Position numbers and translations under genes: made by a program. This document shows positions 1-31,639 of a stretch of DNA of 37,031 bases, in pieces. Below the pieces are notes generated by a model. The model saw only the letters and a list, made by a program, of their open reading frames with translations. It was not told the origin of the DNA and made no database searches. This DNA comes from Terramyces sp. JEL0728 (Eukaryota; Chytridiomycota; Chytridiomycetes; Rhizophydiales; Terramycetaceae): contig JADIIU010000123.1 of the NCBI GenBank assembly GCA_027603945.1, forward strand, positions 1-37,031, given 5' to 3'. The number at the start of each line of letters is the position of its first letter. The stretch's first letter is position 1.

Positions 1-1238
1 GAAAATGTAAATACTTCAATATTAAATTTATTGGAAACATTTCCCACACCCAAAGCGCCTACATCTCCGCCTCGAGCACTACGGAAATCAACTTCAAGGA
101 TTGCTGATTTTGCAGAAATCTTGAGGAGGTATATACAGTCTAAATTAGACCAGCGATTGTGGAAATTACTCTGCAAGAACAGCAGCAATTGTATACATAT
201 TTGATATCGCTTACACCCAGCGCATTGAATGATTTCCAGTATAAAACACGGCCGCGACTTGGGCAGGATATTGAAATTGATAATTATACTCTAATATTTC
301 CACACTATTTAAATAGATTTCAAACAAAGAGCATCAGGTTGAAAGCAAAGTATCAAAATACAGTCAAATATTCACTAATTATGCCAAAAGTAGATACAAA
401 TTTTGAACTGCAGGTTGACCCATTAGGAGGCAAGCTCGGAGGAAGACAGCCTGAGGTTGATTTGGTTGTAAAATTAAATTGTCTGAACAAATCAGCAGTG
501 GTGCTGAATGCGGTGATACAGATTGAAATCCAAGGAGGGCCGAGACATTTTGTGGTTATAAAATGCAGGAAAAGGGATACCAATAAACTACTGCCTCCTC
601 AACCAATGGAAGCTGATATAAATCAAAGGGATGCGATATTTCCCGGATCCAGTTACAGGTAGCCAATCTTAATACTAGTATACCAAAAACTCTAGTTAGA
701 CTGAGGCTAATGTTGTTTGCAGTTGATGGGATAAAGTTAAAAGGCATATTTAGAGAAGCTGGGCAATCATGGGAAGTTCAAGCGCTGGAAACTCATTTGA
801 AGAGGGGAACTTATTATTCATGCACAGATGGCTACTCAATAGCCTCATGTTTAAAAGTACTTGTTACTAACAGTAGAACAATCTTAAAACTCTCCCAAGT
901 GCTCCGTTTTTGAAAATCCCCAAAGATATTATTTATGGAACGCAGTCTTCGCAGCTGTGTTGGAATAGGCTTATCCTATCGTTCGCGGACAACTCTACTG
1001 AAATTAATCTAATAATGTGGGTCATTGACCTACTGACGACGGTAGTGATCAACGAAAGATATAATGAAATGGGAATCAAGAGTATAGGTAGCCTAATTTA
1101 ATTCCAGTGACAGCAGTGGTGCCAAATCTATGCGACGCAGCAGATTCAGCTGAAATGTACTTGTTACTGCCAGCAATGATTTCATTCATGTCAAAGTTGG
1201 TCGAACATCGATTAGCGATCCAGACTCAAATAAAGTAA
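1..1238 (+). CDS. RhoGAP-domain protein with an ASH-like N-terminal part (5' end outside window)
   Basis: Partial gene; frame 1 is open from base 1. Exons 1-128, 149-658, 679-856, 877-1087, 1108-1238, separated by four 20-nt GT...AG introns, leave 385 codons plus stop. The C-terminal half is a RhoGAP domain, the fold that stimulates GTP hydrolysis by Rho/Rac/Cdc42. KGIFREAGQ matches the GIFRxSG block carrying the catalytic arginine, and NEMGIKSI...VPNLCD matches the NKM...LAxxFxPxL block. The preceding ~170 residues (IFPHYLNRF, LIMPKVDTNFEL, IEIQGGPRHF) resemble a beta-rich ASH/MSP-like domain. ASH followed by RhoGAP is the C-terminal order of OCRL/INPP5B, but no 5-phosphatase is in view, so that identity is only possible. 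AATAAA lies just inside the end of the CDS. The RhoGAP call is firm; the ASH call is moderate. Confidence 0.8.
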
Positions 1239-1289
1239 TTGTATTTACAGCCGGCTAAAAGATCACAACTAAAACGTAAAAATTTATAT

Positions 1290-1816
1290 TTAAACCTTTT
1301 CAGTCTTCAAGCCATCCTTGAAATAAGTAATGTAAGGAGTGATGCCGTCTTCACGGTAGTTCAAGAGACCGACAGCGCCTTCTGGATCCATAGATTCACC
1401 GACAAAGAATTCGTAATCTTTGATGTTGCCTAGGATCTTCTTGACGAATGCAGGAGCGTTGGCTTCAAATGTAGCAACACGATCTGGGTTGTGTTCTTGA
1501 AGATGAGCCTTGATGGTCTTCATGTATCCTTTGATGTATGACATGTAAGATTTCTTGTCAAATGAGGTTTCACTGAGGCGGAAAGTATAGACAACATTGT
1601 TGACAGTAACAGCGCCATCTTCCAATTGCTCTTCTTGTTCTTCAGCGGAAGCATTGGCACCAATGTCGACATCAGCACCTGGCATGACGGTAATGTTCTG
1701 AATTAAAACGTAACTACCTTGCAATCTATTTCAATAGCGATATCGTCAATTTCGCGGATTTCGAAAGCGTCAGAAGCCATTTCATCCCCAGAGATAATGT
1801 CCTTGTAAATAATCAT
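1290..1816 (-). CDS. TMA19: Translationally controlled tumour protein (TCTP)
   Basis: Exons 1816-1718 and 1697-1290, with one 20-nt intron (1698-1717), encode 168 residues, the normal TCTP length. The product starts MIIYKDIISGDEM and carries IGANASAEE, YTFRLSETSFDKKSYMSYIK and the C-terminal block GESMDPEGAVGLLNYREDG, all hallmarks of the family. TCTP is an abundant cytosolic protein that associates with ribosomes. Without splicing the first 33 residues are in a different frame from the rest. Only 73 bp separate this start from the divergent VPS27 start, so both promoters must share that space. An unspliced reading would need a TTG start and would lose the conserved N-terminus. Confidence 0.95.
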
Positions 1817-1889
1817 TTTCTGTTGAGAAAAAAAATTTCAGTCAAGCAACGTTTCAAAGGAGAGGTGGCTGATATTGTAAACTTTGAAA

Positions 1890-3883
1890 ATGAATCTGTT
1901 TGCAAACCCAGCTGACGAAGATATTGGTGAATTTTAGCTTACCGTAGAAAAAGCAACTTCAGAGAATCTTCCCATTGGAACTGAAGACCTTGCGACTAAT
2001 TTGGACATTGCGGACAAAATCAAATCTGGCAAGATTTCGCCAAAGAACTATGTCGCTGCCATTAAAAAGAGGATCAACCATAAAAACCCCAATGTAACTC
2101 TTTTAGCTTTGAAATTGACTGACACTTGTGTGAAAAATAGTGGGAAATTGCTCTTGCAGGAAGTGACTTCGCGGGATTTCGTTGATAATTTAGTCTCGCT
2201 AGCCCGCCAATTGGTAATTATCGTTGACATAGAATACGCATGAGCAAGTACGAAAGAAATCTCTGGAGTTGATCCAAACATGGGCTGCCGCTTTCAAAGG
2301 AAGATCCGAATTTGTAATTGTATGTGAAACCTACGATATGCTCAGAAGAGAAGGTTTAGTTTACTAATACAGGGATGCAATTCCCTCCTATTGAAAAGGC
2401 TAATTCGCTGGCAGTGCTTTTTGAAACAACTACTGTAAGATCTATGCTTATTTAGGCACCAGAATGGACTGACAGCGATTATTGCATGAGGTGTAGGACG
2501 GATTTTACAACTTTCAATAGGAAGCATCATTGTAGAAATTGTGGATCTACGTTTTGTCAGGATTGCTCTTCCAAAAGTATTCCTTTGCCGCTGTTGGGAA
2601 TTACAGATCCTGTACGTGTGTGCGACACTTGCCATTACAAGATCACTACAAAGACAGGAGATGTTGGATCTACGCCTGTAAAGCTAAATAAGCCGGCAAG
2701 AGTAGATTCAGACGATGATGAGGATTTAGCAAAAGCAATTGCAGAATCATTGGAACTGGCAAAGAAATCTACCTCCCTACCAAGACCAAGAGAAGAAAAA
2801 CCAAAAGCCAAATCAAAGGAAGACGAAGAATTGGAATTGGCTATTCAGGAATCACTAAAAGAGGCAGATAGACAGGGAAGACTACAATCAACCCCCAAGC
2901 ACGAAACTAGATATGAGCAAACAAAGACAGAGGCAAAAGTAGGAGGATTGGCTGAATCTCAAGTCGAAAGTATCAGGATTTTCTGTGACTTGGTTGAAAA
3001 AGCAGATCGGGATGTTCAGCAAGGAGGACTGGGAAATTTGAATCCAATTCCGCTACAGACGACGTTTGCCAAAGTGTCTTCACTGCATCGTCCACTGGTA
3101 GATTCGTTGTCAGAGGCGGCTGACAAGTACAAAGCCTTATATGATCTGAACACTGAACTAACAAATGTAATCAAAGATTATGATGTATTGCTACAGCAAA
3201 GATTACAATATTCGCAAAGTGTTTCCGGTGGGCTTGGATCAAATCCCCAATATGGATATCCTTCGTATGGTAATTTCATATTAACCATAGGAACCTATCA
3301 AGGACATAGTTTTAATCCCGGCCCGCCATATGCTCCAGGACATCAGTCAAATCCTTCGCAGTCATACGGCCAACAATATCCTGTGCAAGGCGGATATTCT
3401 CCTGCACAATATCCCCCACAATCACAGGGCGGCCATCCTGTACACCATGCACCACCAGCCCAGTATGCAACATCGCAAACTTCAAATACTTCAACCCCAC
3501 AATACGCTCCGTTCCAGCCACCAGCCAATCAACCATACACTCCTTCGCATCCTCCAAACACAGCCCAGTATGAACAGTCAACCGCTCCTAGTCAACCAGG
3601 AGCAAACGATCAATACTCTGCACCGCCAGGAAACCAATATGTCCCATCTCAACCACCAGCCAGTGAATATGCAGGAAATCAAGAATACGCACCATCTCAA
3701 CCTCAACAGTATCCACAGCAATTTAACTCACAACCTAATCAATATGGTCAGCAATCGCAACAATATAACCCAAATGGTCCACACCACCAAGCGTATCCCC
3801 CACAACCTGGGTATCCAAACCAAACTCAACAGCAGCAAAATCCACCAGCCAAACCTCAAGAAGCACCGTTAATTGAGCTCTAG
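1890..3883 (+). CDS. VPS27: ESCRT-0 subunit Vps27/Hrs
   Basis: Six exons (1890-1926, 1948-2213, 2233-2353, 2373-2434, 2456-3269, 3291-3883) with introns of 21, 19, 19, 21 and 21 nt encode 630 residues. Order: VHS domain (about 1-145), FYVE zinc finger (about 165-225) with WTDSD, RKHHCRNCG and CDTC, two ubiquitin-interacting motifs (about 251-265, DLAKAIAESLEL; 284-299, ELELAIQESLKE), a coiled region, a Pro/Gln/Tyr-rich tail, and a terminal LIEL clathrin-box-like motif. This is the full Vps27 architecture. It sorts ubiquitinated membrane cargo on PI3P-positive endosomes. The last intron is 21 nt without an in-frame stop, so it is inferred from pattern; the other four are required by frame, by a stop, or by domain continuity. 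Confidence 0.97.
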
Positions 3884-4033: not shown

Positions 4034-4660
4034 ATGGAATCTGTACTTTGTGTAATTAGAGAATGTTTTGTTTATAAAATACCGCCACGAAATTCAGCAC
4101 AAGGATACAGGTAAACTATACTAATTCAGAGCGTCGGATTGGGATGTAAATTCATTTCTATGGACCGGAAGACTGAGAATGATATCGGTAGGTGATGATG
4201 TAGCTCTTCATCTGGAGGACAATACAACAGGAGAATTGTTTGCAAAATGTCCAATAACTGACGGTGCAGTTGAACCAGTTCTGGATTCATCTCGTTATTT
4301 CGTAATCAAAGTAGTCGCGCCGACTGGCCAATATGCATTTGTTGGACTGGGATTCCAAGAACGGTCGTACGCATTTGACATGAATGTAGCTCTACAAGAC
4401 CACCAAAAGTACTCTGGTATTAACATAGACGGGTAAACAATAAAGGAGCGATCCAGGAGCAACCTAAATTTGAATCTATTGATTATTCGTTAAAAGAAGG
4501 CCAGAAAATTGAGATTAGTCTGAACGGATTCAATAAGGAAAAGAAGGATAAAGTAGGCGATTTTTCAAAGTTTGTCATTGCACCACCTCCAAGCAACCAG
4601 AAGTGGGATGATTTTGGGGATTTCAAGTCTGATACTGATGGATGGACTTCTTTTGAATAA
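4034..4660 (+). CDS. NECAP-family clathrin adaptor accessory protein
   Basis: Exons 4034-4110, 4130-4408, 4429-4660 with introns of 19 and 20 nt give 195 residues. The N-terminal NECAP PH-like domain is clear: MESVLCVIRECFVYKIPPR, GYRASDWDVNSFLWTGRLR, DSSRYFVIKV and the DMNVALQDHQK block. The C-terminus carries WDDFGDF and ends WTSFE, acidic and aromatic motifs of the kind that bind AP-2 ear domains. NECAPs act in clathrin-coated vesicle formation. The second intron joins HQK to RVNNKGAIQEQPKF in a new frame, so splicing is required. The stop codon is embedded in GAATAAA. Confidence 0.95.
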
Positions 4661-5272: not shown

Positions 5273-7676
5273 ATGGATCAGGGAAATCAGGAATGGCAGC
5301 CTACAAACCAAATCTCATTGAATATACAGCAGCTACAATCAAAAATCACCAAGAATCCATGGGACAATGAAGCCAGAGAGCAACTGATAAAAGAAACCAT
5401 CAAATTGGGAGATAATGAACAAGTTGACCTCGCATTTAAAGGCTTTTTGGATCAGTTTCCAACTTGCGTATGTTTTATTAATCCCAGGTTCGCATTTGGC
5501 TAAAGTACATTGACCATACGACTTCAATTCAAGACTATACAAAGCTGGAAGAGATTTTTAAATCATGTATTCAAAAAGTCCCTAACGTGCAGCTGTATAG
5601 CAAGTACGTTGATTATATTATTGAAATACAATCTGATTTTGAAACTGTTGTTTCTACTTTTGAATATTGTTTGAAAACTGTAGGTACTGATAAAGAATCT
5701 GGCGATTTATGGTACAAATACATTACTTATTGTCAGCAGCACCAAGTAACTATTCCTAATCCAGACTCAATCGAATTATGAAGAACAACAAAGGATGGAT
5801 CAGTTGCGAAAGATCTTTCACAGAGCTGTCCACACACCTTTAAACAACATTGAAGATATCTGGAAGGAATACGATACATTTGAAAATCAGCTGTCCAAAC
5901 TAACTGCGAAAAAGTTTATATCGGATCAAGCAAGTGGTTACATGACTGCGAGGGCTTGTTCAAAAGACTTGAAGGCATTGCTCGAACCGATTGAAAAAAC
6001 ACAGGCCAAATGGATTACTAAACCACCAACATGGTCGTCAAATCAAGTACAACTACTAAATTACTGGAAAAGATACTTGTCGTGGGAACAAAGTAATCCT
6101 CTGAATTTGGATAAAGAATCGTTGATAGCCCGCGTATTGTATGGATATAAATGCTGTTGGCTAATGTTGAAATATTTTGTCGAATTATGGTATGATTGTG
6201 CTAGTTTTTTGAGAGATAATGACAAGGCAGAAGAAGCAATTTCAATTCTTAAACAAGGAATCACTGAAAACCCCTCTTCTCTATTACTAAACTTTACTCT
6301 AGCAGAACACTATGAACAGAAAAAAGTACATTTCACCGAAATTCAGGCACTGTTTGATACTCTCTTGAAACTATTGGAAAGCAGCTATGAGTCCTCGAAT
6401 GAAAAGTTTGACCAGGAAAGGGAGCAGCTGAAAAGTTTACTGAAAGAAAACAGCTTTATGGAAGACGATGGTGAAGCCAGAGAACGAGAACGTGAAATTG
6501 CCAAAGGTATTTTGTACTAATTTAGAACATGAAAAGGAAGTCTACCAGAGAGTTGAAGTGCCAAGATTGAAAAAGAATGAAATGTTTAAACAAAGCGTCA
6601 GTTTGGTCTGGATTGTTTATATGCGACTAACAAGACGTAGTCAATCGATCAAAGCGGCCAGAATTGTATTTGGAAAGGCAAGGAAATCCACTTTGGTCAC
6701 TAGCCATGTTTACGTTGCATCTGCATTAATGGAATACTATGTCAACAAAGACGCAGTTGTAGCTGGTAAAATTTTTGAAGCTGGGTTAAAAGCGTTTCCC
6801 ATTAATGAAGATCCTCACGCTGCTGATTTCATTTCTCATTATATTGAATTTTTAAAGGGCTTGAATGATGACAACAGTAACCTTGGTTAACATAGATACC
6901 AGAGCGTTGTTTGAACGAGCTTTGTCCCAAATACCGCCTGAAAGATCGAGAGCATTGTGGACAAAATACATTGATTATGAAACTCAGTACGGTGATTTGT
7001 CCAATCTGTACAAAATTGAAAAGCGGTTAGGAGAGGTTTTCCCAACTGGTAAATTAGCCTTACGTTAGAGGATGTCAATTCAATCGACTGGGCAGTAAAA
7101 ATTGCATCCAAATGGTCGTATTTTGATATTGCCTATGTTGGCGAATTGGAGTTGGGGCTAAAGCACTTGGAAGGAATTCCGCGTATTCCTGCACCAGCGC
7201 AGGCAAAACAAGCGCAAAACTCTTTATTAAGAAATGATCAAGGCAGACAAATTGCAATGCTTGGCGGTGTCAATGTAGATCAATACCCTAGACCAGAGTT
7301 TGGAAAGTGGAATTTCTATAGAGCTGAGCCAGGACAGGCTAAAATATGCAAGATTACTGAGCTCGATCAACCAAGGAGCGAGCCTGTCGCCGTCAGTAGC
7401 CATACAGCCAAGAAGAAGGAAGGTCCACAAGTGCCTGAACCGATTGCCAGACTTATGGAGAAACTACCTCCCAAAGATGGATATAGCGGCCCTTATTTGA
7501 ATGTAGAAGAGCTGGTAACTTATTTGATGCGTCTAAATATTCCTGTTAGTTTGGGAAAGATGGTAAATGCCCCAGATCGTGATGTCAAACTCGGCATGAA
7601 GCGACCTCGCAATGATGATGATGGTAATTTTGGTTTAATATTAGGACGGCACTCAAAGAGTTATCGCACTGATTAA
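5273..7676 (+). CDS. RNA14: Cleavage stimulation factor subunit CstF-77 / Rna14
   Basis: Exons 5273-5467, 5488-5745, 5765-6506, 6526-6876, 6896-7048, 7069-7623, 7645-7676 with introns of 20, 19, 19, 19, 20 and 21 nt encode 761 residues. HAT (half-a-TPR) repeats run through the protein: NPWDNEAREQLI, RIWLKYIDHT, WKEYDTFENQLSK, ELWYDCASFLRDN, LVWIVYMRLTRR, RALWTKYIDYET, as in the Suf domain of CstF-77/Rna14. The factor is part of the pre-mRNA 3'-end cleavage complex. A further 18-nt GT...AG segment at 6584-6601 could be a seventh intron (NEILVWIV instead of NEMFKQSVSLVWIV); it keeps frame, so it is undecided. The last intron (7624-7644) also keeps frame. TAATAAA overlaps the stop. Confidence 0.95.
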
Positions 7677-7875: not shown

Positions 7876-10055
7876 ATGCCTAATCAGTTTGTTAGCAAAA
7901 CCTCTTATAGAGTATACAAGACGAATGACGCAAGAACATTGATAGAAAATCCTGCCCGATTGGATATTAATGGCAACGAGCCTAATACCATGTTGGCAAT
8001 CACCGATACTGGAATCACCGTGGGAGGTATTTCGTTTTAACAGCAGAAAAGAGCGACCTCTTCCCAAGTGCCCCTAATGCAATCATTTACACTCAGGAAA
8101 TCATGGGATTGGTAGGTGTAATCGAGCTGTCTTTTGGGAAATATTTATTGGCAATCACCTCCAGAAAACTTGCTGCTACTTTACAAACACACAAGATTTG
8201 GAAGATTACTGGTATTGCAGCAATTCCTATTGGGGCTGGAAACCCAGTTGACATCTTTGCACTTCCTGATAAAGATTTGGGGAGACATGCTGTGGATGAA
8301 GATGTTTTGAAATCCATTAAGGAAATCTTCCATTCTGGCCGCCTTTATTACTCCAACACCTATGATGTTACTCATTCTATCCAGCACAACTATTTCTCAA
8401 AAGCAATGAAACCAACCTCTACTATTGTCGACGATCGCTACTTTTTCAACGAAAATCTACAAAAGCAATTGATTAAAGGTAGCATTCGCTAATATAGCAA
8501 ACAATGCTGAAAATGACACTACCCCATGGATAACCAAGATCATTGCCGGCTTTGCTGGTACTATCGATGTCGATTTGAAGCAAAATGAAGCCAAAGCCAT
8601 CACTTACCAGGTATTGTTGCTATCTCGCATCAACCACAGGAGACTAGGCACTAGATATGTTCGCAGAGGGCTGGATTATCAAGGAAATGTTGCCAACAAT
8701 GTGGAAATGGAGCAAATTGTTTTGAATCAAGATTTCCTCAAAGACAAGTCTATTAGCTCTTATGTTCAACTCCGTGGCAGTGTTCCTTCAATCTGGGGTC
8801 AAGATTTGGATTTGTCTTACCGTCCAAGATTAGTATTAGCTGATATCAAAGACGAGACGATTTGGAAACCAATCAAGACGCATTATCTAGATTTAAAGCA
8901 CCAATACATTGGGGAGCGTGGATTCCAAGCTGGTATGGACAATGGAACTGTTGTTTGTGTCAATTTACTGAACGATGACGGGTTCGAAGGACCTTTAACG
9001 AATATCTACGAAAACACCGTCAAAAAGTTTGGTGATTCGAAAATCAGGTACGAGAACTTTCCAATGAGCAAGTTCTGCAAGAATGGAAACTTTGACAAGA
9101 TTGAAATTCTTAAAGATCGTGTGCATTTGCCGCTTATTAACAGTGGCTGGCTTGTTGCTGAAGGCGACGTTCCATCTCTCCAAACAGCTGGGAATTTACG
9201 AGTATCAAAGATCCAAACTGGTGCAGCCCGTGTTTCCTGCTTGGATTCATTGGATCGTACAAACTTGACTTGCAGTATCTTTGCGAGATATATGCTTCCT
9301 TACCAAGTGCAAGGTATTTCTCCAGGACTTCCATCTGTCCAAGTGCTACCTGCTACTGGCGTTGCTCCATCTGAAGTTCGAGACACTGTTGCTCCAACAA
9401 GAAAGGCTTTGGAAGGATGTTACACTACCCTCACCTGTTTATGGGCGGACTCTGGAGACAGCGTTTCCTTGATGTATGCAGGAACTGGTGCGTTGAAAGC
9501 AGATGTGACTCGGTCAGGAAAGAGACAACTGCAGGGCTATTACAACGACGGAATGAACTCTTTGACCAGATACTACTTGAACAACTGTATTTATTTTTAA
9601 CTATAGTTACTCATGGACATTTGCAGGATACCTATGATCTCTTGACTGGGAAGCTCACAGTTGAAAAAATCAATGAACTAGCAGAAGCTGAAGGCCCGAA
9701 AAAAGCAAAGAGAATCAAAAGCCCGTTGGTTAAAAGAAACAATTTCCCTGGAAACATTCTTCCATCTTCAGTGCTAGACATTGTCGAACCAGTATACTTT
9801 AATGCCAGAGAGTATTTGGAAACCAGCAAGTTAGCGGGCAAGGACAAGAAAGTAGTTGATCGCGTCTTGACTGTAATGAAGGAAGTTGCTCCAGAAAGAA
9901 TCAATACCATTTTTGAGCTAGTTTGGGCAATGTACATTTTCTTTTGGATATTCTTAATCACTAGACTTTTGAAGATCCAAGGACAAACAGTAGTTGATAC
10001 TCCAAAGTTGACAAAGGAAATGGTCGAATTAAAGAAAATAGTTCAAAAGAAATAA
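7876..10055 (+). CDS. SAC1: Sac1-type phosphoinositide phosphatase
   Basis: Exons 7876-8026, 8047-8478, 8498-9586, 9607-10055 with introns of 20, 19 and 20 nt encode 706 residues. The Sac domain is recognisable throughout: GRLYYSNTYDVTHSIQ, GTRYVRRGLDYQGNVANNVE, SVPSIWGQ, and the catalytic CX5R(T) motif CLDSLDRTN with Cys at about residue 442. GTGALKADVTRSGKR and YLNN-FTHGHLQDTYDLLTG (joined across intron 3) are also family blocks. Near the C-terminus, LVWAMYIFFWIFLITRLL is a membrane segment, as in ER/Golgi Sac1; only one clear segment is seen. The enzyme dephosphorylates PI4P. The middle serine of CLDSLDR replaces the more usual cysteine without touching the C and R needed for catalysis. 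Confidence 0.95.
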
Positions 10056-10999: not shown

Positions 11000-11446
<447 letters not shown>

Positions 11447-11584
11447 CTAGTGTTAGTTGGAGATTACTTTTTTTTGTGTTGGAAGGTTTTGGAAAGCCGC
11501 ATCTGTCTTATGTAGCTAGGGTTGCTGAGCCCTAATTTTCGCACCATGTCAGCAATGGATAATGCCAGCAGATGGAATCAAATA

Positions 11585-11823: not shown

Positions 11824-11845
11824 ATATCAAAAACACAATATTTAT

Positions 11846-18422: not shown

Positions 18423-20079
18423 TTATTGATTAATATTCAAATTTTCCAATAATTCGATGTGACTTGAGGCGGGCCGTTCCATCAGTTCATCCATTCTCCT
18501 GCCAGTGAATATTCCATAATATATGATTGATTCCAAGAGATCTTTGTCCTGCAAGTGCACAAGGATTCCATAAAACTGATTGAGTTTTTGGAAAGCCAGC
18601 CTGTATTGGTTTAAACCTTCTAGGTGCAGTTTGTAAGCCGTATTAATACTTTCCACAGCAAAGTTGCCGATTTTGGTACAACACAGGAGAAAGAAAGCGC
18701 AGGGAAAGAGTGAAAACAGCCCAATAGACGTGAAAAACTGTAGCTGAGGGTTATAGCGCAACAGCAAAGATACAATCTGAGCATTGGAAAGTGCTGCATC
18801 CAAGGCTTCCTTGAAATATAACTGCAAAAGCACATTCTTCCCTTTGATGACATTCTTCATAAATTTTGGCATCATTAAATTGATTCGATTGCTATTATAC
18901 ACGCACGCCGTGTACACCGAAAGCCAAGATACATCAAAGTCTTTTGCGATTCGATTTTTGATTATGTAAAATGACTGTTGCAGTTTGACTGAAAATGCGT
19001 CCATCCATTCATTCAGTGACGAGGAAATAGTTCCTGCGATGTATTCCAAACCTGGTATCATGTGTGACAATTCCAAATTTACATATCTATGCAGTTTTGA
19101 CTGGATCCGCAGCAGCAAAGCATGGTACGCTTCAATCGATTGATTTGGTAAACTGGCAGTAAACCATTCTTCACTGCTCATGATTTCAACCCCATAATAA
19201 TCCAGATGCGTTGCAGATTCAAAATAGAATTTGTTTGAAGGCAAAAATATCTGGTTTTCCATATCTACAATGGTGCCATATCCCAAGTGCTTTGGAACTA
19301 TTGCATAGTTTGTATACATTAACCACCATATCCTTCGAATGTTTTCTCTTTCGTAATCAAAAGGTGTGAGTTTTACAATTCCCGATTCCGAATTAATCTT
19401 GCTAGATTTAGCGTACTGAAGTGCCAGTCTATAGTATATCCTTGCTTCGTCGATTCTATGTAAATCTAAATGAAAAATGTATTACGGTAGCAATTGGTGG
19501 CGATTGTTGAGAGCGTTAACACTACAACATGATCGCAGGCATCGGCATAGTTGAACGATTGGGCTTTTTGAAGAAACAAATTTGCAAGTTCGATCCGATT
19601 GGATATTCCGCGGGGCAGTAGGTCATCTTTTATAAACATTGCTCCAGAACAATACAAAGCAAACCGCAATGGCCAGAAGATTTTCGCAGATTCTCGATAA
19701 TACTGCTCGGGAATGCCTGTTGTGACGCATGGAAACTTTTGAAATCTTAGTTTCAGCAGATAATCATGGTTTTTTACAAACAGTTCTTTTTCCAATTCTG
19801 CCGGCAAAGTCACCTGCACTATTGGGGGCAATATCCTTTCCCTCTTTTCCAAATTGGTATTGTCCGGGACTAGTAAATTTTGCTCCATCTGTTTAATCCT
19901 CTGCTCCATCTTTGTTAATTTCCGCTCCAATTCTCTCTGCTGCGAATACTCACATTTTAATTCTTTGTTGGAACAATAGGTACATGGGTGTTTCCGATCG
20001 CACTTTCGTTTCTACGTTAATAGCCAGGTACTTTTAGCGTACAATTATCGCAGGAAAATCGAAGTTTCTTTATCATCAT
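18423..20079 (-). CDS. Zn2Cys6 fungal transcription factor (copy B)
   Basis: Exons 20079-20032, 20011-19486, 19465-18423 with two 20-nt introns encode 538 residues, one more than copy A. The zinc cluster CDNCTLKKRKC...CTYCSNKELKC is again cut by intron 1 between its second and third cysteines, at the same codon boundary as in copy A. The coiled coil is ELERKLTKMEQRIKQMEQNL. Shared blocks with copy A include ENNHDYLL/VKNHDYLL, LRFQKFP, EQYYRESAK, FWPLRFAL, DYYGxEIMSSEEW, MKNVIKGK and YGIF. The divergence is substantial, so the duplication is old. The start ATG-ATG at 20079/20076 is the only one before the cluster. CAATAAA overlaps the stop. Confidence 0.93.
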
Positions 20080-24100: not shown

Positions 24101-26488
24101 CTCCAGGTATTTCACAATTTTGATTCCAAGATCTTCAGTCAAACTCTTCCTGGTTGAATAGAATCCATTAAGGATTCTGTAAACGGTTTGTACTCTGTTA
24201 TTGTATGTTGGCAGATCAAGGGCATCCCCAAGTAACTTTACAAGGTTTCGAGATGTTTCCTGATCGAAAAACATTTCCATGGTAACTTTCTTTTCCAATG
24301 TACCCATGTCTGGAAGAGACGACATGAATGATTCAAAGAATTGCAGGGTAATTTCGTCACTCTTCCAATCAGATATGGTGATACCAAGATCCAATGGGTA
24401 GGCAAACAATGCAACTCTAGTCCTGGCAATCTTGTGAAGCTTGTCAACATTCCCTACCATTAGATAGTAGTAAGTCGCTTGTGTCAAAATTTCATTTATC
24501 ATTGGAAAGTAATCAAATTGAACCTTTTCATACTTTACCAACCAAAAGTCGCAGAATTGATCAACAATTGGTGTCCACGTGTCGGAAGGGCTATTATGGA
24601 TCAATTGGATGAACAGCGGCTTGGTCTTGGTGAATAAATCAAGCAATTTCTTGTCGTTCAGGTCAACAGTAACTGAATCCAAGATCTTTTTCCAGACGAC
24701 CAATACTTTTGGGCCGAAATCGTACCATTTCCAGAATAGTGAATAAATGCCAAAGACTTTGGTCCTTACAGCGCTAAAGAAATCATTTAATGGGCCTTCA
24801 GGAATAGTGCTGGAAGCAAATAAGAAGTTGTCCATTGCATATTGGTGCGTTACAACGTTTGAGATGGTCATGACAGGCGAATTGAAATTCGTAAATAGTT
24901 TCAAGAACACTATTTCTTGGAACTCGTAGTAGTTTTGTTCAGTGATTTTTACGCTAAACATCTTGTCGAGGATGTTTCTGTAAAATGAAAACAAGCGCGT
25001 GTACCCTTCCAACAATACAGAAGTTCCAATCTTTGGATCTTTCTTGTCTGCATTGAGATACAGTGCTTTCAACTTTTTGGTCAAGTCTGCAAACACTTTT
25101 TGGAATATTTTGAACGCGATATCAATGAAATTGGTTCTGCAAATCTTTGTGATGGCTGCAGAATCTACCAAGACGCTAAAGTTGTTTTGCTCCAAGAACG
25201 GCTTTAGTTCATCAAAAGCAGTGATCAATGTTTTTTCCCAATTATCAATCAATTGGATAGTCTTTGCGGTCGAAGGCCAGTTATTTTTTTCAATGGATTT
25301 CATGATAAATTCAGCTGCGTATCTTTGCTTGTTGAACGACTCAAAGGAGGCACTGTAATCGTATTCAATATTATTTTGGTGGATAATATTTTTTACTCGT
25401 TTGAATGAATCGAGAATTAAGTCTGCCTTCAACTCCAACTTTGATCCCTTGCTGCAGGTATTGTTTATCCAATCCCAGATTTGGTCAGCCATCGATCTAA
25501 ACAAAAGATTTGGATCGTTGAGTTCCTTTTCCAACAGCCCAAGCCAGAACTTGACATCTTTTTCCTTCCTGGTGGAACTAAACAGATTAAACACTAGGAC
25601 GAGTTCAACTCTATCATCGTCAATTCCCAACTGTTCGTCCTTCTTTACTACAGAGCCGCTCCGTAGTTTTACTGGCGGATATTGCAAATACAGATAAACT
25701 ACTTTGTGGAGGAAGTCCACGGGGAATGCGCTGTTAAAGTAGGCCAAAAACCTGTACCATTCACTCTGTCTTTCAAAGATTCCCAGTTTTCCAATCTTTT
25801 GCACAAAGTAATTCAGGATTACGTCCTTGTGGTAATCTAAAAGGCTTTTCCAAGGAACGTTGGCGCTGTACACCCAATATTCATCCAAAAGACTTGCCAA
25901 ACATTCTGGAGAAACAGTATATAACATTTCGCAAACTTGTGCATTGGATAGTCCGTAACGATCTATTGTTAATTGATGAATACCCTTGTCTTTTACAATC
26001 GCGTCTAAAATTGCCGTTCTTCTAAACCGAATACAATTCTTGATCAACAAGCCTTGCACTGTTTTGGAAGATTGATCATAGAAAGAGAAAATCAGAGTGT
26101 CGCTTGCAGAGGAGCGGACAATTGCCGGCAAGATGATTTTTCTGGCAACCACAGGAAGTAATTGCTTTTCCTTGTTGAACCAACCGACCACTCGCTCATG
26201 AATCTCTGGGTGTTTTAGGATCATTGAGGATATGAGCAAACTCGCATTGGTTTGAAGGGAAACTTGCTTGTGAATGTCATCAAGCAACAGCACCTGCTCA
26301 ACTGCATCCAACGCACCCGGTTTTGGTGTTTGAGCGTAGTGGTTGACCACTTTTTGTTGGACTGAAGAAGACAATCCTTCAAGGTCCTTGCTGATGGAAA
26401 GGAGCGCATCTTTGGTTAACGACGGGTATTTCGTATTCAGTTGCAAAACTAATTGTTCGCTAACGTTAATTGAAAAACACCTTTGCAT
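21104..26488 (-). CDS. Large intronless helical protein with C-terminal RGG box, function unknown
   Basis: 1794 residues in one uninterrupted frame, the largest gene here and without a single intron, unlike most neighbours. I do not recognise the family. The sequence is mostly predicted alpha-helical. Stretches such as FVKKSLAGALISKEAEFMKV and DVNVFLINSLGQLAKVGG in the last third look like HEAT/ARM-type helical repeats. The last ~20 residues are an Arg/Gly tail (YGRGGRAGGRGGRGTRG), typical of RNA-binding or methylated proteins. No catalytic motif, signal peptide or membrane segment is apparent. Codon usage looks similar to its neighbours, so recent transfer is not obvious. It would suit a cytosolic or nuclear scaffold, possibly RNA-associated; this is inference. 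Confidence 0.85.
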   Translation of the reverse strand: MQRCFSINVSEQLVLQLNTKYPSLTKDALLSISKDLEGLSSSVQQKVVNHYAQTPKPGALDAVEQVLLLDDIHKQVSLQTNASLLISSMILKHPEIHERVVGWFNKEKQLLPVVARKIILPAIVRSSASDTLIFSFYDQSSKTVQGLLIKNCIRFRRTAILDAIVKDKGIHQLTIDRYGLSNAQVCEMLYTVSPECLASLLDEYWVYSANVPWKSLLDYHKDVILNYFVQKIGKLGIFERQSEWYRFLAYFNSAFPVDFLHKVVYLYLQYPPVKLRSGSVVKKDEQLGIDDDRVELVLVFNLFSSTRKEKDVKFWLGLLEKELNDPNLLFRSMADQIWDWINNTCSKGSKLELKADLILDSFKRVKNIIHQNNIEYDYSASFESFNKQRYAAEFIMKSIEKNNWPSTAKTIQLIDNWEKTLITAFDELKPFLEQNNFSVLVDSAAITKICRTNFIDIAFKIFQKVFADLTKKLKALYLNADKKDPKIGTSVLLEGYTRLFSFYRNILDKMFSVKITEQNYYEFQEIVFLKLFTNFNSPVMTISNVVTHQYAMDNFLFASSTIPEGPLNDFFSAVRTKVFGIYSLFWKWYDFGPKVLVVWKKILDSVTVDLNDKKLLDLFTKTKPLFIQLIHNSPSDTWTPIVDQFCDFWLVKYEKVQFDYFPMINEILTQATYYYLMVGNVDKLHKIARTRVALFAYPLDLGITISDWKSDEITLQFFESFMSSLPDMGTLEKKVTMEMFFDQETSRNLVKLLGDALDLPTYNNRVQTVYRILNGFYSTRKSLTEDLGIKIVKYLETLPRKDALAMFFDEDWSLNDKTKDPTVFESYLSPHLNPYDRRVQRMILRRQTLIREQPERLTYFSTAVNGAMAFVERNRKFTTLDTVLPVCQWVESKIRRVEFTRLGLTHPVLQIFPRLMSLYLPKVAPIDEKLFIESYESNVKLIEVLNEVIEDRYNCEPTAYPAINESFQGYVQQITNGLLYFLLLKELKFNPYPYAIDTVDERLKVYQLWFEYLFNMKFTAYSRRQSDSFAKQAFVFPMAASSDDGIIDFFAKSDVKLRKRLRTAMRAVTRKYETVVLGLYEKVLAPEQMQMLNGKLPKDVEDHLSYGTIDRFIQLKDFYIRFHLPSKTLNNIFTVLKGFICDNDTVRNTQSYRRIQDLFLVKELLDFANSEEFVGKVQKTKYGIEIFKQIELGQAEAQAIIQLLKIQISGIEYLWEIKYAGKHHQSLWSDLKFVVNQYENRYAERLFLKSHGIRKTLIDNAIQLVTVCPSALYIKQVLSDLLLHRPELVLETVKKEFQRGSQLFTKGVFTIGNPGDPNFLIPNAAFLNRMSTKEQQQLAGLYKFIAMDPTEKIERKVLAVQRFAHLSSTSVGEIALLWEKLNEDKEAPPHAFVKKSLAGALISKEAEFMKVLDLILSPKWIEDRDVNVFLINSLGQLAKVGGILFYRKLEEIVTEKFNTLGVASMTAIIRVLSEYKEGENMLLQIWKKFKNLHSKVSSCLVETIIEMLNLSNSEAIWSAIESMVESGGVTSLFMAMNIPSSEFWDPLWNQFADVKSQFYGVEGFIGEIKEIVFSKKEIALRYFDNVILKLINSSEDSLDAIRAKSLALCRLPHWYGIDETVNSSIFALSRDYVLNVKLEMDRSSSKYFVYHIANHVVSSMQRYMDFEAQLKKKGKDYVVGRSDHADVFNPMLQILFDNAGASESMNVIFTNMSKVNMLLKTKALNISRLQGLDKTVCQDRLSFYTAMDSAYQTLNSLMSVANEHKYVAPESAYGRGGRAGGRGGRGTRGRRGRR

Positions 26489-26713: not shown

Positions 26714-27345
26714 TCACTCACTCAAATCAACAACTCTGGCCTTTGTCACTTTCTTGAATCTGTCAATAGGAAGAGCAATTTTCCAATCGACGTGTCCCGC
26801 ACCTAAAAACAAGACAGACGGCTGGAATTAACAACAATTACTTTTAATCTATCAATATTATCCGTTAGTAGCACTGGTACGGTTTCCAGCATTCCAATTG
26901 GCGTTACACCATTGTTTCCATATCCAGTAAGTTTGAGTGCTACTTCTTCTGGCGCAATTCTCATATTGATTGCCTTTGAGCTTTGCTGGCCCCATTCCTT
27001 CATCAAAGCATTTAGTTTTTTGTTGTTTATCTTGTCAGTATACTGAACGACCACCAGTATATATTTCGGATGGATGTAATCCAGCTGATTATCCTGTCCT
27101 TCTTTTGGCCTCCATTTTGTGTTTTCAAACAATAGGGATTTACATAAATGGTCAATTGACGGTGCTTGCAGTCTATCTCTCCGTTGTTCCAAGGGCCATT
27201 CGTAATAATCTGATTCAACTGAATAAAAATTGCTGACGTCATCAATCCCTAACTCTTTTGCGGCATCAATTACTTGAAGAGCAGCTTTAGGGATATCTCC
27301 ATGCTGCTGTGTCTTTACTCTTTCTAAAAAATTCTCCAAATACAT
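26714..27345 (-). CDS. YbaK/ProRS-associated aminoacyl-tRNA deacylase-like protein
   Basis: Exons 27345-26842 and 26821-26714 with one 20-nt intron encode 203 residues. The start is the ATG at 27345 (MYLENFLERVK); an upstream reading lacks a supported start. Blocks CKSLLFENTKW, YILVVVQYTDKINNKKL, GYGNNGVTPIGMLETVPVLL and, after the intron, LFLGAGHVDWKIAL are those of the YbaK fold, which hydrolyses mischarged tRNAs. Splicing is required because the glycine-rich end is in another frame. TTTTTGAAATTT lies just upstream of the ATG. The substrate, for instance mischarged tRNA-Pro, is unknown. Confidence 0.88.
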
Positions 27346-27441: not shown

Positions 27442-28394
27442 TTATTCTAATTTTTTGGGTTCAACTTTATCCAGAGGGTGAGATTTAAGCCATTCCTTTA
27501 GAGCTGTCGGCTTATCTGAACAAATACCATTCGCACCCAAAGATCTCGCTCTCTCCCATTTTTCAGGATCATTTAGAGCCCCGCTACCGTCACGACCAAA
27601 GTAGATAACAGAAACTCCCCTTTCGTTCATAGCTTTAACGTATCCTCTATCTGCAAACAGTGTCATATCAGGGCATATCAACGCGGATTCTCTGAATTCC
27701 ATAATATTCAGCAATCCGATCTTGTACAGCATCACTGATTTCAACCCTCGGTACATGTCAAAAAACAGCGGAATTGAATCGCCAAAGTGATTGTGGCAAT
27801 ATTCGTTGATTGATGGCTTGAATGATCCCCAAACTGTGATTTTCTCCCTATTGTATTGCTGAATCATTTTGCCCACTTTAATCACCAGTTCTTCTGGCCC
27901 ATTCTTGCAATCCACTTGCATTGCACAGTTGGGAAACTCTTTCAAGACCGATTCAAAGAGTGGTATACGGTAAGAGTCTGGATTATTCACCACTTGCTTC
28001 TTCTCCAACAAATCTTGCGGGACAATGAGCTTGGGCAAGTCCTTGAAATCGCTGTCATTAGTGCAAATTACTAATCAGAGATTTTACTCTTTAACCCACA
28101 CATCTTTTCCAGTGTATTGTCATGGAAAACTACTATTTCTCCATCTTTGGTCATTTGAACATCCATTTCTAGCATAAATCAACAATAACCCAAAATATCG
28201 GCATTTATACTGGCAGAATACCTAAACCCGGGAAGTGTATTTTCAACCCACTCTCTAGATCCTCCTCTATGGGACATGTAGGTGTGTGGGAATGGGAGAC
28301 CGTTCTTCATTTTGGTAACCTGCTTGCTCTTCAATAGTTTGTATCCAACAAGTGAAGTTGTAGCAATGATAACAAGTGCTGCAGTCGTTGCCAT
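27442..28394 (-). CDS. Glycerophosphodiester phosphodiesterase, membrane-anchored (GDPD1-like)
   Basis: Exons 28394-28190, 28168-28072, 28051-27442 with introns of 21 and 20 nt encode 303 residues. An N-terminal membrane segment (TAALVIIATTSLVGYKLL) precedes the GDPD domain. The catalytic motifs are HRGGSREWVENTLPGF (His-Arg and Glu) and, formed across intron 1, LEMDVQMTKDGEIVVFHD (Glu-x-Asp, His). Later blocks YFGRDGSGALND and GANGICSDKP suit the C-terminal side of the TIM barrel. Layout resembles human GDPD1/GDE4, which hydrolyse glycerophospho- or lysophospholipids. TATAAA lies 20-26 bp before the ATG, and GAATAAA overlaps the stop. Confidence 0.93.
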
Positions 28395-28605: not shown

Positions 28606-30439
28606 TCAATGTATTTGCCCTTTTATATCCACACCCTTCTTTTCCATAAGCTGGACTTGTTCAACAAGTACCCCATACGCGATCTTACAATCAATTTGAT
28701 CTTCTTCAATTTCAACACCATACTTTTGTATAAACCCTCTTGTTTCCCTGATTTCATTTTTCTTTGGGTTAGATAAAGAAAATCCTAAAAACAGAGAAAG
28801 CTGGTGGACAGATAGCTTTGGTCGGAAGGATTTGGTTAGCTTCCTGAATAAATTAAGTCGTTCCCGTGCTATGAATTGGTCCATCAAGTATCCCGACATG
28901 TTTGGTGCAGAGTGGTATAGCTTAAAGAATGAATTGAAATCACCGGTGGATAAACTCGACCTTACTGCTAGCGCGTGTTTCACATTTGGCCCTGGATCTG
29001 TGATACTACCTAGTAATTTGATTAGATCCTTTCTGTTGAACGTATGAAGCATATAAATGATCCGATACGAAATAAACTCATCTTTACAACCTGGCTGATT
29101 AAAAATGTTATATAATTGATTCAATTGAGCAGCACATTGATTGTATTCTCCCAAATCACCCTGAGTTAAAGAAAAATACCTTTTCAATGGCAATCCTTGC
29201 ATGGGTTTCATACACTTTGGCAGTAAACTCATTTTTAATTTGCTGGACTGTTAAATCCTGTCGAAGACTTTTAAACTGGTCGCAAATAAAGGTATAGTTT
29301 TCTTCTCTCTTCCATTTCTGTTTAAGGTGCTCTAGGGTTTTTGTAAGAACGCTTAGCGGTCTAACGGTGGAGGGATCCGGTGCTGTAGTTAGTCTTAGGT
29401 AAGGCTTTTCCAAGTCCTGGCAGGTTCCAATGATTGAAACACCATCCCAATTAACAAAATCTTGATGGTCGTCGCCATACTCCAGCCTTGCTTTTTCAAA
29501 CCTTTGCGACTGCTGCTTCTTTTTCCTTTGCTTATTCAAATGCTCATCCTTATCTGCTTTAAATCTATTTCTCCTCTGTTCTCTTCTCTTTGTTTCTATT
29601 TCCCGCTCTACAGGCGTTAAATGGCTCATATCCGGTTCTTTTTCGTCTTCTGAATCAGAATCAAATATTCCGCTTCCTACCGATGGGCTGGATACTACTG
29701 CCTTTCCTTTAGATTTCGCTAATAATTTACTTGCCTTTTTCGAGATTTGTGGGGATTTCATTAATGGTGATCTAATTTTGGGTGGTGCGTCTAGCGGTGA
29801 AGGAGTATATTGTTTTTTCGAAGCTGAAACTGGTAGATAAGCTGGAGCAAATCGCTGTGGTACTGAAGGGATGTGGTCTTGCGAAGTAAATGGACTGGAT
29901 TACAATAAAATTACTCTGGAAGAGGCATCCTGTCCCAATCAGTAGTCCAAATTGCGTTGGTATCCATTGCTACTCCAATTACTTTTTTCAGTTTAATTTC
30001 AATCATGCCTTTTGTTGCTGGGGTACTTGAATTTATCGCTCTACTTAAATAGCTCTTTAGACTCTCTGGCCATCCTTGACTTGCTTGCTGATCTACATTA
30101 ATGAAATGTTACTATTATTCTGAGATAATACTGCTGGTTTTGGCTGTTGCTGCTGCTGGTATTGTACTCCAGCAAGCTGGTATTGCGTTCCAGAATAGTT
30201 GGGATACTGTTGATACATCACTGGGTTTGCTTGAACTGTACCGTACGATCTTGGATTAATTACAATTACTGATTATAATACTGTTGGTATTGTTGGTAGT
30301 ACTGCTGATACTGCTGGGCCAGATGCGGATTCTGGGTGAAATATTGATTCATTTGATCCTGACTCCTGTAATTAAATATCAGGTACCAAGGTGTCCCGTC
30401 AGCGTTGACAAAATGTGAGGGATTGAACTGATGATTCAT
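28606..30439 (-). CDS. SAC3/GANP-family protein, LENG8/Thp3-like
   Basis: Six exons (30439-30387, 30365-30270, 30249-30113, 30092-29915, 29894-29180, 29160-28606) with introns of 21, 20, 20, 20 and 19 nt encode 577 residues. A Gln/Tyr-rich N-terminus is followed by [13 protein letters not shown] and [13 protein letters not shown] (across intron 4), a basic/acidic linker, and the SAC3/GANP domain: [42 protein letters not shown] (across intron 5). This order matches LENG8 and yeast Thp3, linked to transcription elongation and mRNA processing with a Csn12 partner. The start lies 27 bp from the divergent MECR start. The fourth-exon reading is fixed by frame through to [11 protein letters not shown]. 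Confidence 0.93.
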
Positions 30440-30466
30440 AATTTTAATTTTCTAATTTTCTCACAG
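30440..30466. promoter_or_regulatory. 27-bp divergent start-to-start region
   Basis: This is all that separates the ATG codons of the LENG8-like gene (-) and the MECR gene (+). It is nearly pure A/T apart from TCTCACAG next to the MECR ATG. Each promoter must therefore overlap the coding region of the other gene, or the two are co-regulated. Confidence 0.6.
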
Positions 30467-31639
30467 ATGTATCGCCAAGTAAGGAGTATCACATCCAAAG
30501 CATTGTTTTTTCGGTCCCATGGAAAACCAGAAGCTGTGTTGTCAGTAAAGAACTACGATTTGGCAATGAGTAACGAACAGGTGGTGGTAAAAGTACTCGC
30601 TGCTCCTGTTAATCCATCTGATATAAACATCATCGAAGGTATGTGACGTTTAATGTAGGGACATATCCTATTAAGCCGATTTGGACCGAGTTGGGGGCAA
30701 TTGGGGGGCAAGAAGGGTAGGTTTATCTTACTTTAGAGTTGGAGAAGTGGTAGAGGTTGGATCCAAAGTATCGCACCTTCGACCAGGTGACTGGGTATTA
30801 CCAGTCAAGCAATCATTTAGTAATTGGTGCTTACCTAGACACCTGGCAAACCTACGCAACTGCGAACGCAGCGAATGTGGTAAAGTTGGAAAACGTCAAA
30901 GAAATCTCTCCAATCCTAGCCGCTACTATCTCTGTAAACCCGCCAACAGGTACTCGTGGTTAATGCGAGCTTATAGAATGATTAAAGATTTTGTCAAGCT
31001 GGAAAGAGGAGATGTCATTATCCAAAACTCTGCAAATTCAGCTGTTGGTCAAGCCGTAATCCAATTAGCAAAAGCTTGGGGGTTCAAGACTGTCAATATT
31101 GTCAGGAACAGGTAGATACGCGCTAAAAAGACCTGATTTTGAAAATTTGGAAAAGGATTTGTCAGATTTAGGAGCCGATTTGGTAATCACCGAAGATCAA
31201 GTAAGAAGGTCCGATACCGAGAAAATGATCAATGATCTTGGGGTTCCAAGGTTAGGTTTGAATGGCGTTGGTGGTAAAAGTGCAACAAATATGGCGAGGT
31301 TGTTGGCGTAATTCGAGTTTAACCAACAGCAATGATGCATACATGGTTACATATGGCGGAATGTCAAAAGAGCCTGTCGTCATCCCTACATCTTTGCTTA
31401 TATTCAAAAACCTGACGTGTACCGGCTTTTGGATGAGTAAATGGGCTTCAGACAGACCTGATAGTGCCCGCATTGACATTTACTCTGACTTGTTTGAATT
31501 GGCTAAACAACGCAAATTCAAAGAACCTCTTCATGAAACCTGGTCTTTCAAAGACTTGCCTGGCGATCAACTGGTTAAAATCGCCTCGCGGCCTGAAAAG
31601 GGCTTTCAAAATGGTAAACGGATCCTTGTCCCAGCGTAG
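30467..31639 (+). CDS. ETR1: Mitochondrial enoyl-ACP/thioester reductase (MECR/Etr1)
   Basis: Seven exons (30467-30638, 30659-30716, 30737-30819, 30839-30949, 30970-31111, 31131-31307, 31330-31639) with introns of 20, 20, 19, 20, 19 and 22 nt encode 350 residues, the most intron-dense gene here. MYRQVRSITSKALFFR fits a mitochondrial presequence. GTYPIKP carries the family's conserved Tyr (about 60, across intron 1). GVGEVVEVGSKV and SANSAVGQAVIQLAKAWG (NADPH-binding) are MDR-superfamily blocks. The enzyme does the last step of mitochondrial fatty acid synthesis. Intron 6 is the longest seen (22 nt), and introns 4 and 5 end GAG and AAG. Confidence 0.96.

What the first reader, a model, noticed from the sequence alone, without database searches (positions are those of the whole stretch)
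129..31329. Uniform 19-22 nt spliceosomal introns across the region
I placed 46 introns in 15 genes: 11 of 19 nt, 22 of 20 nt, 12 of 21 nt and one of 22 nt. Removing them restores frame and family blocks in every case, for instance VPS27 2354-2372 (GTTTAGTTTACTAATACAG) and NECAP 4111-4129 (GTAAACTATACTAATTCAG). All complete spliced genes are divisible by three. Known introns this short are rare: the nucleomorph of Bigelowiella natans (18-21 nt) and Stentor (15 nt). I know of no well-described fungus whose standard intron is 20 nt. A spliceosome able to define such introns would be notable.
Basis: partly seen in the sequence, partly recalled or inferred. Interest (0 to 1): 0.92.

Follow-up and report, generated by a model that had tools for sequence, protein, structure and literature searches.

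The report
Chytrid fungus with 20-letter introns
A chytrid fungus has genes cut up by introns only about 20 letters long, close to the shortest the splicing machinery could be expected to handle, and its splicing factor U2AF65 seems to have changed to match.

Summary
Confirmed at DNA level; no RNA was seen. The window is a 37,031-base contig of Terramyces sp. JEL0728, a chytrid. One spliced protein equals NCBI's model (1 gene checked); 11 of 11 proteins scanned match their families. Ten paralogues share two intron sites with lengths 19-21 nt and frame kept. Genome-wide one 20-nt sub-pattern occurs 2893 times against 236 reversed. Of 263 motif instances joining open frames, branch A lies at +14, +15, +16 in 100, 57, 22; no other position exceeds 7. 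No clear excess above 23 nt. So 5'-site-to-branch distance sets a sharp floor, leaving no room for a polypyrimidine tract before AG. U2AF65 is kept, but RRM1's two RNP1 aromatics, present in 118 of 121 aligned proteins, are histidines here and in Boothiomyces, and lost in unnamed P0105. Comparable: heterotrich ciliates, mikrocytids, nucleomorphs. I found no fungus so described in ten paper searches. U1 and U6 were not found, unexplained.

The parts
129..148 (+). intron 20 nt, 5'-cut gene (1-1240)
   Evidence: frame restored only with it
659..678 (+). intron 20 nt, 5'-cut gene
857..876 (+). intron 20 nt, 5'-cut gene
1088..1107 (+). intron 20 nt, 5'-cut gene
1698..1717 (-). intron 20 nt, TCTP gene
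   Evidence: TCTP 250 bits, full model
1927..1947 (+). intron 21 nt, VPS27
   Evidence: VHS 131 bits
2214..2232 (+). intron 19 nt, VPS27
2354..2372 (+). intron 19 nt, VPS27
   Evidence: same letters in contig C183
2435..2455 (+). intron 21 nt, VPS27
3270..3290 (+). intron 21 nt, VPS27
4111..4129 (+). intron 19 nt, NECAP-like (DUF1681)
   Evidence: 196 bits
4409..4428 (+). intron 20 nt, NECAP-like (DUF1681)
5468..5487 (+). intron 20 nt, RNA14
   Evidence: spliced protein = NCBI model
5746..5764 (+). intron 19 nt, RNA14
6507..6525 (+). intron 19 nt, RNA14
6877..6895 (+). intron 19 nt, RNA14
7049..7068 (+). intron 20 nt, RNA14, branch CTTAC
7624..7644 (+). intron 21 nt, RNA14
8027..8046 (+). intron 20 nt, SAC1-like
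   Evidence: Syja_N 231 bits
8479..8497 (+). intron 19 nt, SAC1-like
9587..9606 (+). intron 20 nt, SAC1-like
12362..12382 (-). intron 21 nt, Rab GDI
12483..12503 (-). intron 21 nt, Rab GDI
13070..13090 (-). intron 21 nt, Rab GDI
   Evidence: the one gap of the 1gnd alignment lies 3 residues before
13238..13258 (-). intron 21 nt (or 18, tandem AG), Rab GDI
14204..14223 (+). intron 20 nt, zinc-finger-like gene
15401..15421 (+). intron 21 nt, NUDIX
15523..15542 (+). intron 20 nt, NUDIX
17436..17454 (-). intron 19 nt, Zn2Cys6 gene a, site 2
   Evidence: same site in 10 paralogues
17987..18007 (-). intron 21 nt, Zn2Cys6 gene a, site 1
19466..19485 (-). intron 20 nt, Zn2Cys6 gene b, site 2
20012..20031 (-). 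intron 20 nt, Zn2Cys6 gene b, site 1
26822..26841 (-). intron 20 nt, tRNA-editing-domain gene
28052..28071 (-). intron 20 nt, GDPD
28169..28189 (-). intron 21 nt, GDPD
29161..29179 (-). intron 19 nt, SAC3/GANP gene
   Evidence: 78 bits spliced vs 36 for 28609-29250 alone
29895..29914 (-). intron 20 nt, SAC3/GANP gene
30093..30112 (-). intron 20 nt, SAC3/GANP gene
30250..30269 (-). intron 20 nt, SAC3/GANP gene
30366..30386 (-). intron 21 nt, SAC3/GANP gene
30639..30658 (+). intron 20 nt, ETR1/MECR
   Evidence: no gap at junction vs 1zsy
30717..30736 (+). intron 20 nt, ETR1/MECR
30820..30838 (+). intron 19 nt, ETR1/MECR
30950..30969 (+). intron 20 nt, ETR1/MECR
31112..31130 (+). intron 19 nt, ETR1/MECR, weak score 2.2
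31308..31329 (+). intron 22 nt, ETR1/MECR
11447..11467 (-). further likely intron 21 nt upstream of UBC start (not among the 46)
   Evidence: score 12.0
25963..25983 (-). further likely 21-nt intron in the 1.8 kaa gene, readable through (not among the 46)
   Evidence: score 10.8
26460..26480 (-). further likely 21-nt intron in the 1.8 kaa gene, readable through (not among the 46)
   Evidence: score 9.1
14296..14316 (+). possible 21-nt intron in zinc-finger-like gene, readable through (not among the 46)
   Evidence: score 7.3

Best explanation
The segments are spliceosomal introns of Terramyces sp. JEL0728 that have shrunk, genome-wide, to a minimum. Shown from sequence: GT(A)...YTAAY...AG anatomy, branch A mostly at intron position 14, 15 or 16 with about 5-6 nt after it, hence 19-22 nt; no second, longer class with the same motifs was detected. 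Inferred mechanism: the major spliceosome removes them. U6 contacts the 5' site over about +1 to +6, U2 (unchanged branch-pairing stretch) pairs with about positions 9-15, and the AG follows at once; 6 + 2 spacer + 5 + branch A + 5 gives the observed floor of 19. U1 and U2 particles probably cannot sit on one intron together as in human complexes, so assembly must be sequential or strongly compacted. With no polypyrimidine tract behind the branch point, U2AF probably acts as a protein bridge (U2AF35 on AG; UHM to SF1/SF3B1), while RRM1's pyrimidine-reading surface has decayed. The confidence is for real spliceosomal introns; I give the U2AF-bridge step about 0.45.
For: 46 introns/15 genes reproduced. 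NCBI's own RNA14 model identical to my spliced 761 aa across 6 introns. Pfam: 11 of 11 spliced proteins scanned hit a family above its cut-off. U2AF65's own gene holds four such introns and scores 334 bits (cut-off 310.3) when spliced, against 251.7 and 27.9 for the two unspliced matches. GDI vs 1gnd: 438 residues, one 1-residue gap, 3 residues before a junction; ETR1 vs 1zsy: no gap at any of 6 junctions, nearest gap about 7 residues off. Ten Zn2Cys6 paralogues share both sites, lengths 19-21; in one 98.8% pair the only internal indel is 1 nt, in intron 1. 180 kb sample plus window: of 263 motif instances of 14-40 nt joining open frames, branch A +14:100, +15:57, +16:22, any other position at most 7. 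Whole genome: 2893 vs 236 reversed control for one 20-nt sub-pattern. U2 and U5 snRNA over cut-off with their conserved stretches. RRM1 RNP1 aromatics lost in 3 of 121 aligned proteins: Terramyces, Boothiomyces, unnamed P0105.
Against: No RNA evidence was available. U1 and U6 (24 and 29: weak hits inside coding genes; 40, 56, 62: nothing) were not found and RED_N gave nothing, none with a positive control. 6 of 46 introns lack YTNAY at the usual place. At the last two RNA14 junctions only 31 of 95 and 5 of 43 homologues keep the length. In the long-intron test the bin 27-30 nt has 23 of 124 against 13 of 205, and the joining rates above 30 nt are for most bins slightly over the control's although the counts are not, save 28 vs 27 at 41-50; introns with other branch motifs would have been missed. 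The U2AF65 correlation rests on one named family and one unnamed protein.
Confidence: 0.95

Rival explanations
1. Real introns, but recognised the ordinary way: U2AF65 reads the T-rich stretch between the 5' site and the branch point (a polypyrimidine tract upstream of the branch), and the RRM1 changes are neutral or tune specificity.
For: T is the commonest base at +5 to +9 (0.37-0.59) in the 177 selected introns; U2AF65 keeps RRM2 RNP1, the RRM1 RNP2 tyrosine, the ULM tryptophan and the UHM.
Against: That stretch is also where U1/U6 and U2 would pair; both RNP1 aromatics of RRM1 are lost; at least eight pyrimidines are said to be needed for strong U2AF65 binding (PMC8363638, passage), for which 20 nt leave hardly any room.
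Confidence: 0.3
2. The segments are not removed at RNA level but skipped in translation (frameshift or bypass), or are errors or pseudogene lesions.
For: No RNA data here.
Against: Fixed GT, branch and AG spacing; 12-fold genome-wide excess over the reversed control; length variation at shared sites in ten intact paralogues; the frames are otherwise open.
Confidence: 0.02
3. The sharp floor reflects deletion bias stopped by splice-signal length alone, with no change in the spliceosome itself; the same would happen in any fungus given deletion pressure.
For: The sum of conserved contacts already gives 19 nt (inference); PMC10245619 proposes such a threshold (passages).
Against: In human extract splicing stops at a 46-nt 5'SS-branch distance and about 52 nt is the estimated minimum without altering the spliceosome (PMC6692369, passages), so some difference in assembly seems needed; U2AF65 RRM1 differs.
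Confidence: 0.3

Closest known systems
Heterotrich ciliate introns (Stentor coeruleus, 15-16 nt; PMC9505925)
   Same: One narrow length class, GUA at the 5' end, branch A at a fixed position, U2AF2 and U2AF1 homologues listed (sections 2.1, 2.5 and table passages)
   Different: Stentor branch A at the 10th or 11th position and no strong branch consensus; here +14 to +16 with YTAAY in 32 of 46; here a fungus with about 1.2 introns per kb in the window
Mikrocytid introns (16-17 nt; PMC10245619)
   Same: Numerous, uniform, conserved in sequence (passages)
   Different: Intracellular parasites, 224 introns in 179 genes, 17-19 spliceosomal proteins found; here a fungus with an estimated 12,000-19,000 introns that encodes SF1 and U2AF65
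Chlorarachniophyte nucleomorph introns (18-21 nt; as cited in PMC10245619)
   Same: Nearly the same length range (passages)
   Different: Relic nucleus of an endosymbiont; not a free-standing nuclear genome
Human short introns dependent on SPF45 or Smu1/RED (PMC8363638, PMC6692369)
   Same: Truncated polypyrimidine tract; short 5'SS-branch distance as the limiting factor (passages)
   Different: The human model intron there is 56 nt; SPF45 and Smu1 were not sought here, RED not detected (no control)

Membership tests
U2-type (major) spliceosomal intron | GT-AG ends | tested here: met
   all 46 (the search demanded it); one GC-AG intron seen in SF1
U2-type (major) spliceosomal intron | Branch motif complementary to U2 snRNA | tested here: met
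   YTNAY in 40 of 46; U2 keeps GUGUAGUAUC
U2-type (major) spliceosomal intron | Major snRNAs encoded | tested here: inconclusive
   U2, U5 found; U1, U6 not found; U4 not tested
U2-type (major) spliceosomal intron | Polypyrimidine tract between branch and AG | tested here: not met
Not a feature of all lineages (recalled)
U2-type (major) spliceosomal intron | Removed from RNA | not testable with these tools
   no reads available
Ultrashort uniform intron systems (heterotrichs, mikrocytids, nucleomorphs) | One narrow length class with a sharp lower bound | tested here: met
Ultrashort uniform intron systems (heterotrichs, mikrocytids, nucleomorphs) | Fixed branch A position | tested here: met
   +14/15/16: 100/57/22 of 263 motif instances, no other above 7
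U12-type intron | Long conserved 5' site and TCCTTAAC branch (recalled) | tested here: not met
   5' consensus GTAATT, branch YTAAY
Self-splicing group I/II introns | Catalytic RNA core of hundreds of nt (recalled) | tested here: not met
   length 19-22 nt

The most novel reading that the evidence does not exclude
[quoted passage not shown] A compacted or sequential assembly, without U1 and U2 side by side on the intron, would be the only splicing mode in an opisthokont, a relative of yeast and human. The loss of RRM1 aromatics in the unnamed protein P0105 would mark a second lineage that went the same way.
Probability: 0.4. Interest if true: 0.86.

Novelty: new variant of a known kind. Interest (0 to 1): 0.75.

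Why it matters
It brings minimal introns into a fungal lineage with a named strain and named relatives to compare, so the question how small an intron a spliceosome can process, and which parts must change, becomes directly testable in an opisthokont. It also names one concrete molecular correlate (U2AF65 RRM1) and warns that gene finders with a minimum intron above 20 nt would fail on such a genome.

Tried and rejected
U6: the Rfam model gave two 27-bit hits, shown again; the sequence around both reads as two copies of one protein-coding gene, judged by eye; rejected as chance. BLAST with the Rfam consensus and two patterns with up to 3 mismatches gave nothing; U1 by Rfam gave nothing. I draw no absence claim: assembly gaps or introns inside the snRNA genes are possible.

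RED_N: nothing, but no eukaryotic control, so not used as evidence.

Apparent lack of intron 2 in four Zn2Cys6 paralogues was my gene finder reading through 21-nt introns without stops; GT and AG are in place in all four, so all ten have both sites.

First SF1 model stopped early because only GT donors were allowed; a 21-nt GC-AG intron continues the protein.

The 177-intron consensus set was chosen for branch spacing 10-12 and gap 1-4; its spacing figures are therefore not evidence by themselves, and I use the unselected 263 for that.

Overlap with contig C183: 5 SNPs in 240 intron bases, 46 in 4148 coding bases (35 synonymous, 11 not), no intron indel; consistent but too small to weigh.

Papers: searches (all ten allowed) gave listings, some capped (15 of 2744, 20 of 355, 20 of 21, 25 of 57). 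No listed title or abstract start describes 20-nt introns in a fungus; the seven papers that hold both 'chytrid' and 'short introns' were not opened. The library lacks most subscription papers and preprints, and I did not see the genome paper of this strain.


Full report
WHAT IT IS. The window is G000:C123 of a 15.0 Mb, 231-contig assembly. The RNA14 protein spliced from 5273-7676 is identical over 761 aa to an NCBI protein of Terramyces sp. JEL0728 on a contig of 37031 bases, the window's length; next come Boothiomyces macroporosus 89% and Globomyces 55%. The strain is a chytrid of Rhizophydiales, Terramycetaceae; Boothiomyces is in the same family (85), Globomyces in the same order (86).

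OBSERVATION. Reading the window and gene models from a dynamic-programming splicer (12, then 61 and 64) give 46 introns in 15 genes, 19:11, 20:22, 21:12, 22:1 (80). One choice was mine: the first GDI intron as 21 nt where the splicer took 18 (tandem AG). 34 of 46 shift the frame if kept. Against the reversed window the score gives 29 vs 1 (>=10) and 39 vs 5 (>=8) candidates (82); the score was learned on a set that included the window. Four more candidates, three of them 21-nt segments readable through, make 46 a lower bound (82).

HOMOLOGY. Pfam was run on 11 of the 15 spliced proteins (RNA14 in 16, ten in 67, VPS27 there cut to 427 aa); all 11 hit at least one family above its cut-off, in keeping with the names used here. 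The SAC3/GANP match rises from 36 bits for 28609-29250 alone (16) to 78 spliced (67). GDI aligns with 1gnd over 438 residues with one single-residue gap, three residues before the second junction (73). ETR1, with six introns including the weakest-scoring one, aligns with 1zsy without a gap at a junction; the nearest gap is about seven residues from the first (71). That 1gnd is bovine GDI and 1zsy human MECR is recalled. For RNA14, homologues keeping the same length in an 8-residue box at the six junctions are 83 of 85, 65 of 91, 90 of 94, 95 of 100, 31 of 95 and 5 of 43 (78); the last two fall in variable stretches and carry little weight.

NATURAL EXPERIMENT. Two Zn2Cys6 genes of the window and eight in contig C183 have introns at the same two alignment columns and phases. 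Site 1 has lengths 19, 20 or 21; site 2 has 19, 20 or 21. In four copies the 21-nt site-2 intron was left in by my splicer and shows as a 7-residue insertion exactly there; GT and AG are in place in all four. The copies starting at 91 and 7706 of the reverse complement of the 20,000 C183 bases held are 98.8% identical over 1645 bases, and their only internal indel is one base, in intron 1. Frame is intact in all ten. The eight C183 copies form two blocks of four near-identical partners, so they are fewer than eight independent cases.

GENOME-WIDE. I held 180 kb from C1-C3 besides the window and C183 (32). With GT[AG]...YTAAY...AG and open frames of 90 nt on both sides, counts are 53, 78, 30, 17 at 19-22 nt against 6, 6, 8, 7 in the reversed control; 18 and 23 nt give 9 vs 7 and 5 vs 3, and no other length from 14 to 40 stands out (51). 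A stricter test with GTA and lengths to 200 nt gives 42, 63, 13, 14, 8 at 19-23 nt against 2, 4, 0, 4, 2; the bin 27-30 has 23 against 13 (unresolved, perhaps overlap with true sites), and from 31 nt on the counts are at or below the control save 28 vs 27 at 41-50, though as rates mostly slightly above it (75). Longer introns with other branch motifs would be missed. Of 177 selected introns, 165 cannot be read through (82). Over the whole genome GTAN7YTAAYN3AG occurs 2893 times (1427 + 1466) against 236 for the reversed pattern (65). Scaling by the 10 of 46 window introns that fit, or by density, gives about 12,000 to 19,000 introns (80); duplicate haplotypes in the assembly may inflate this.

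ANATOMY. In the 263 instances, not selected for spacing, branch A is at +14, +15, +16; +13 has 3 and no other position more than 7. In those 179 the branch A is followed by 4, 5, 6, 7, 8 nt in 12, 80, 78, 7, 2 cases, the search allowing 4-8. In the window 40 introns have the branch A at +14 to +16 (22, 14, 4; 89). So the 5'-site-to-branch distance, not total length, sets the floor. In the 177 selected introns the consensus is AAG|GTA, then A 53% at +4, T 46% at +5, T 59% at +6; G at +5 is only 19%, unlike the usual +5 G (recalled). Contacts recalled from spliceosome structures (U6 with +1 to +6, U2 with branch -5 to +1) sum to 19 with two spacer bases; this is inference.

MACHINERY. U2 (140 bits) and U5 (86 bits) are over cut-off and keep U2 GUGUAGUAUC and U5 loop GCCUUUUAC (17, 18, 29). 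U2AF65 is encoded on C2; its gene has four introns of 19-20 nt and the spliced protein scores 334 bits on TIGR01642, over the 310.3 cut-off, against 251.7 and 27.9 for the two unspliced matches. SF1 is on C39; with a 19-nt, a GC-AG 21-nt and a 20-nt intron it reads on through two zinc-knuckle motifs, seen by eye. In U2AF65 the ULM tryptophan, RRM2 RNP1 and UHM are kept, but RRM1 RNP1 reads KEHCHVEFR where most relatives shown read KNYAFVEFR, KNFAFLEFR or close to it. I aligned Terramyces with the 120 listed hits (of 1519; only 8000 candidates were scored): 118 of 121 have aromatics at both sites; the exceptions are Terramyces, Boothiomyces (same letters) and the unnamed protein P0105 (KNSAIVEFR, RNP2 also altered). 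RRM2 RNP1 keeps both in 120 of 121. That these residues stack on uridines is recalled. U1, U6 and RED were not found, without positive controls.

COMPARISON. Stentor introns are 15-16 nt with branch A at position 10 or 11 (PMC9505925, sections 2.1 and 2.5 read). Mikrocytids have 16-17 nt, nucleomorphs 18-21 nt (PMC10245619, passages). Trichomonas has some of 23 nt (PMC12316389, passages). In human extract a 46-nt 5'SS-branch distance abolishes splicing and about 52 nt is the estimated minimum without altering the spliceosome (PMC6692369, passages). Short human introns with truncated tracts swap U2AF for SPF45 (PMC8363638, passages); ciliates keep SMU1 and RBM17 (PMC12862383, passages). No paper listed or 76 reports, in title or abstract start, 20-nt introns as the rule in a fungus; the library is partial, and the introns are implicit in NCBI's gene model (15).

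VERDICT. Real introns, 0.95. The floor is shown in sequence; the U2AF step is a correlation in one family and one unnamed protein and needs relatives' DNA and binding tests.

Noticed in passing
33007-34587 and 35246-36826: Tandem copies (98.9% over 1581 bases) of a 526-aa FAD monooxygenase gene, each one open frame without introns, with shared neighbouring sequence.
   Followed up: partly
34744 and 36982: Partial extra copies (first 50 bases at least) of the tRNA-Pro gene 16281-16353, one beyond each monooxygenase copy.
   Followed up: partly
L007-L008 (C183, about 5070-19910, reverse strand): Eight Zn2Cys6 genes in two blocks of four, partners 98.7-98.8% alike: recent segment duplication or two haplotypes assembled together.
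   Followed up: partly
1-4689: The first 4.7 kb of the window match the end of contig C183 at 98% identity on the other strand, perhaps separated haplotypes.
   Followed up: partly
G000 (all contigs): U6 snRNA was not found by Rfam, BLAST or two mismatch-tolerant patterns, and U1 not by Rfam, although U2 and U5 are clear.
   Followed up: partly
13238-13258: Tandem acceptor CAGCAG at the first GDI intron (18 or 21 nt), which would add one glutamine after Met1.
   Followed up: no
L035 (SF1 gene, reverse strand): A 21-nt GC-AG intron in the SF1 gene, so the class is not limited to GT donors.
   Followed up: partly
21104-26530: Minus-strand 1.8 kaa gene with Gly/Arg-rich C-terminus and no Pfam match.
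   Followed up: no
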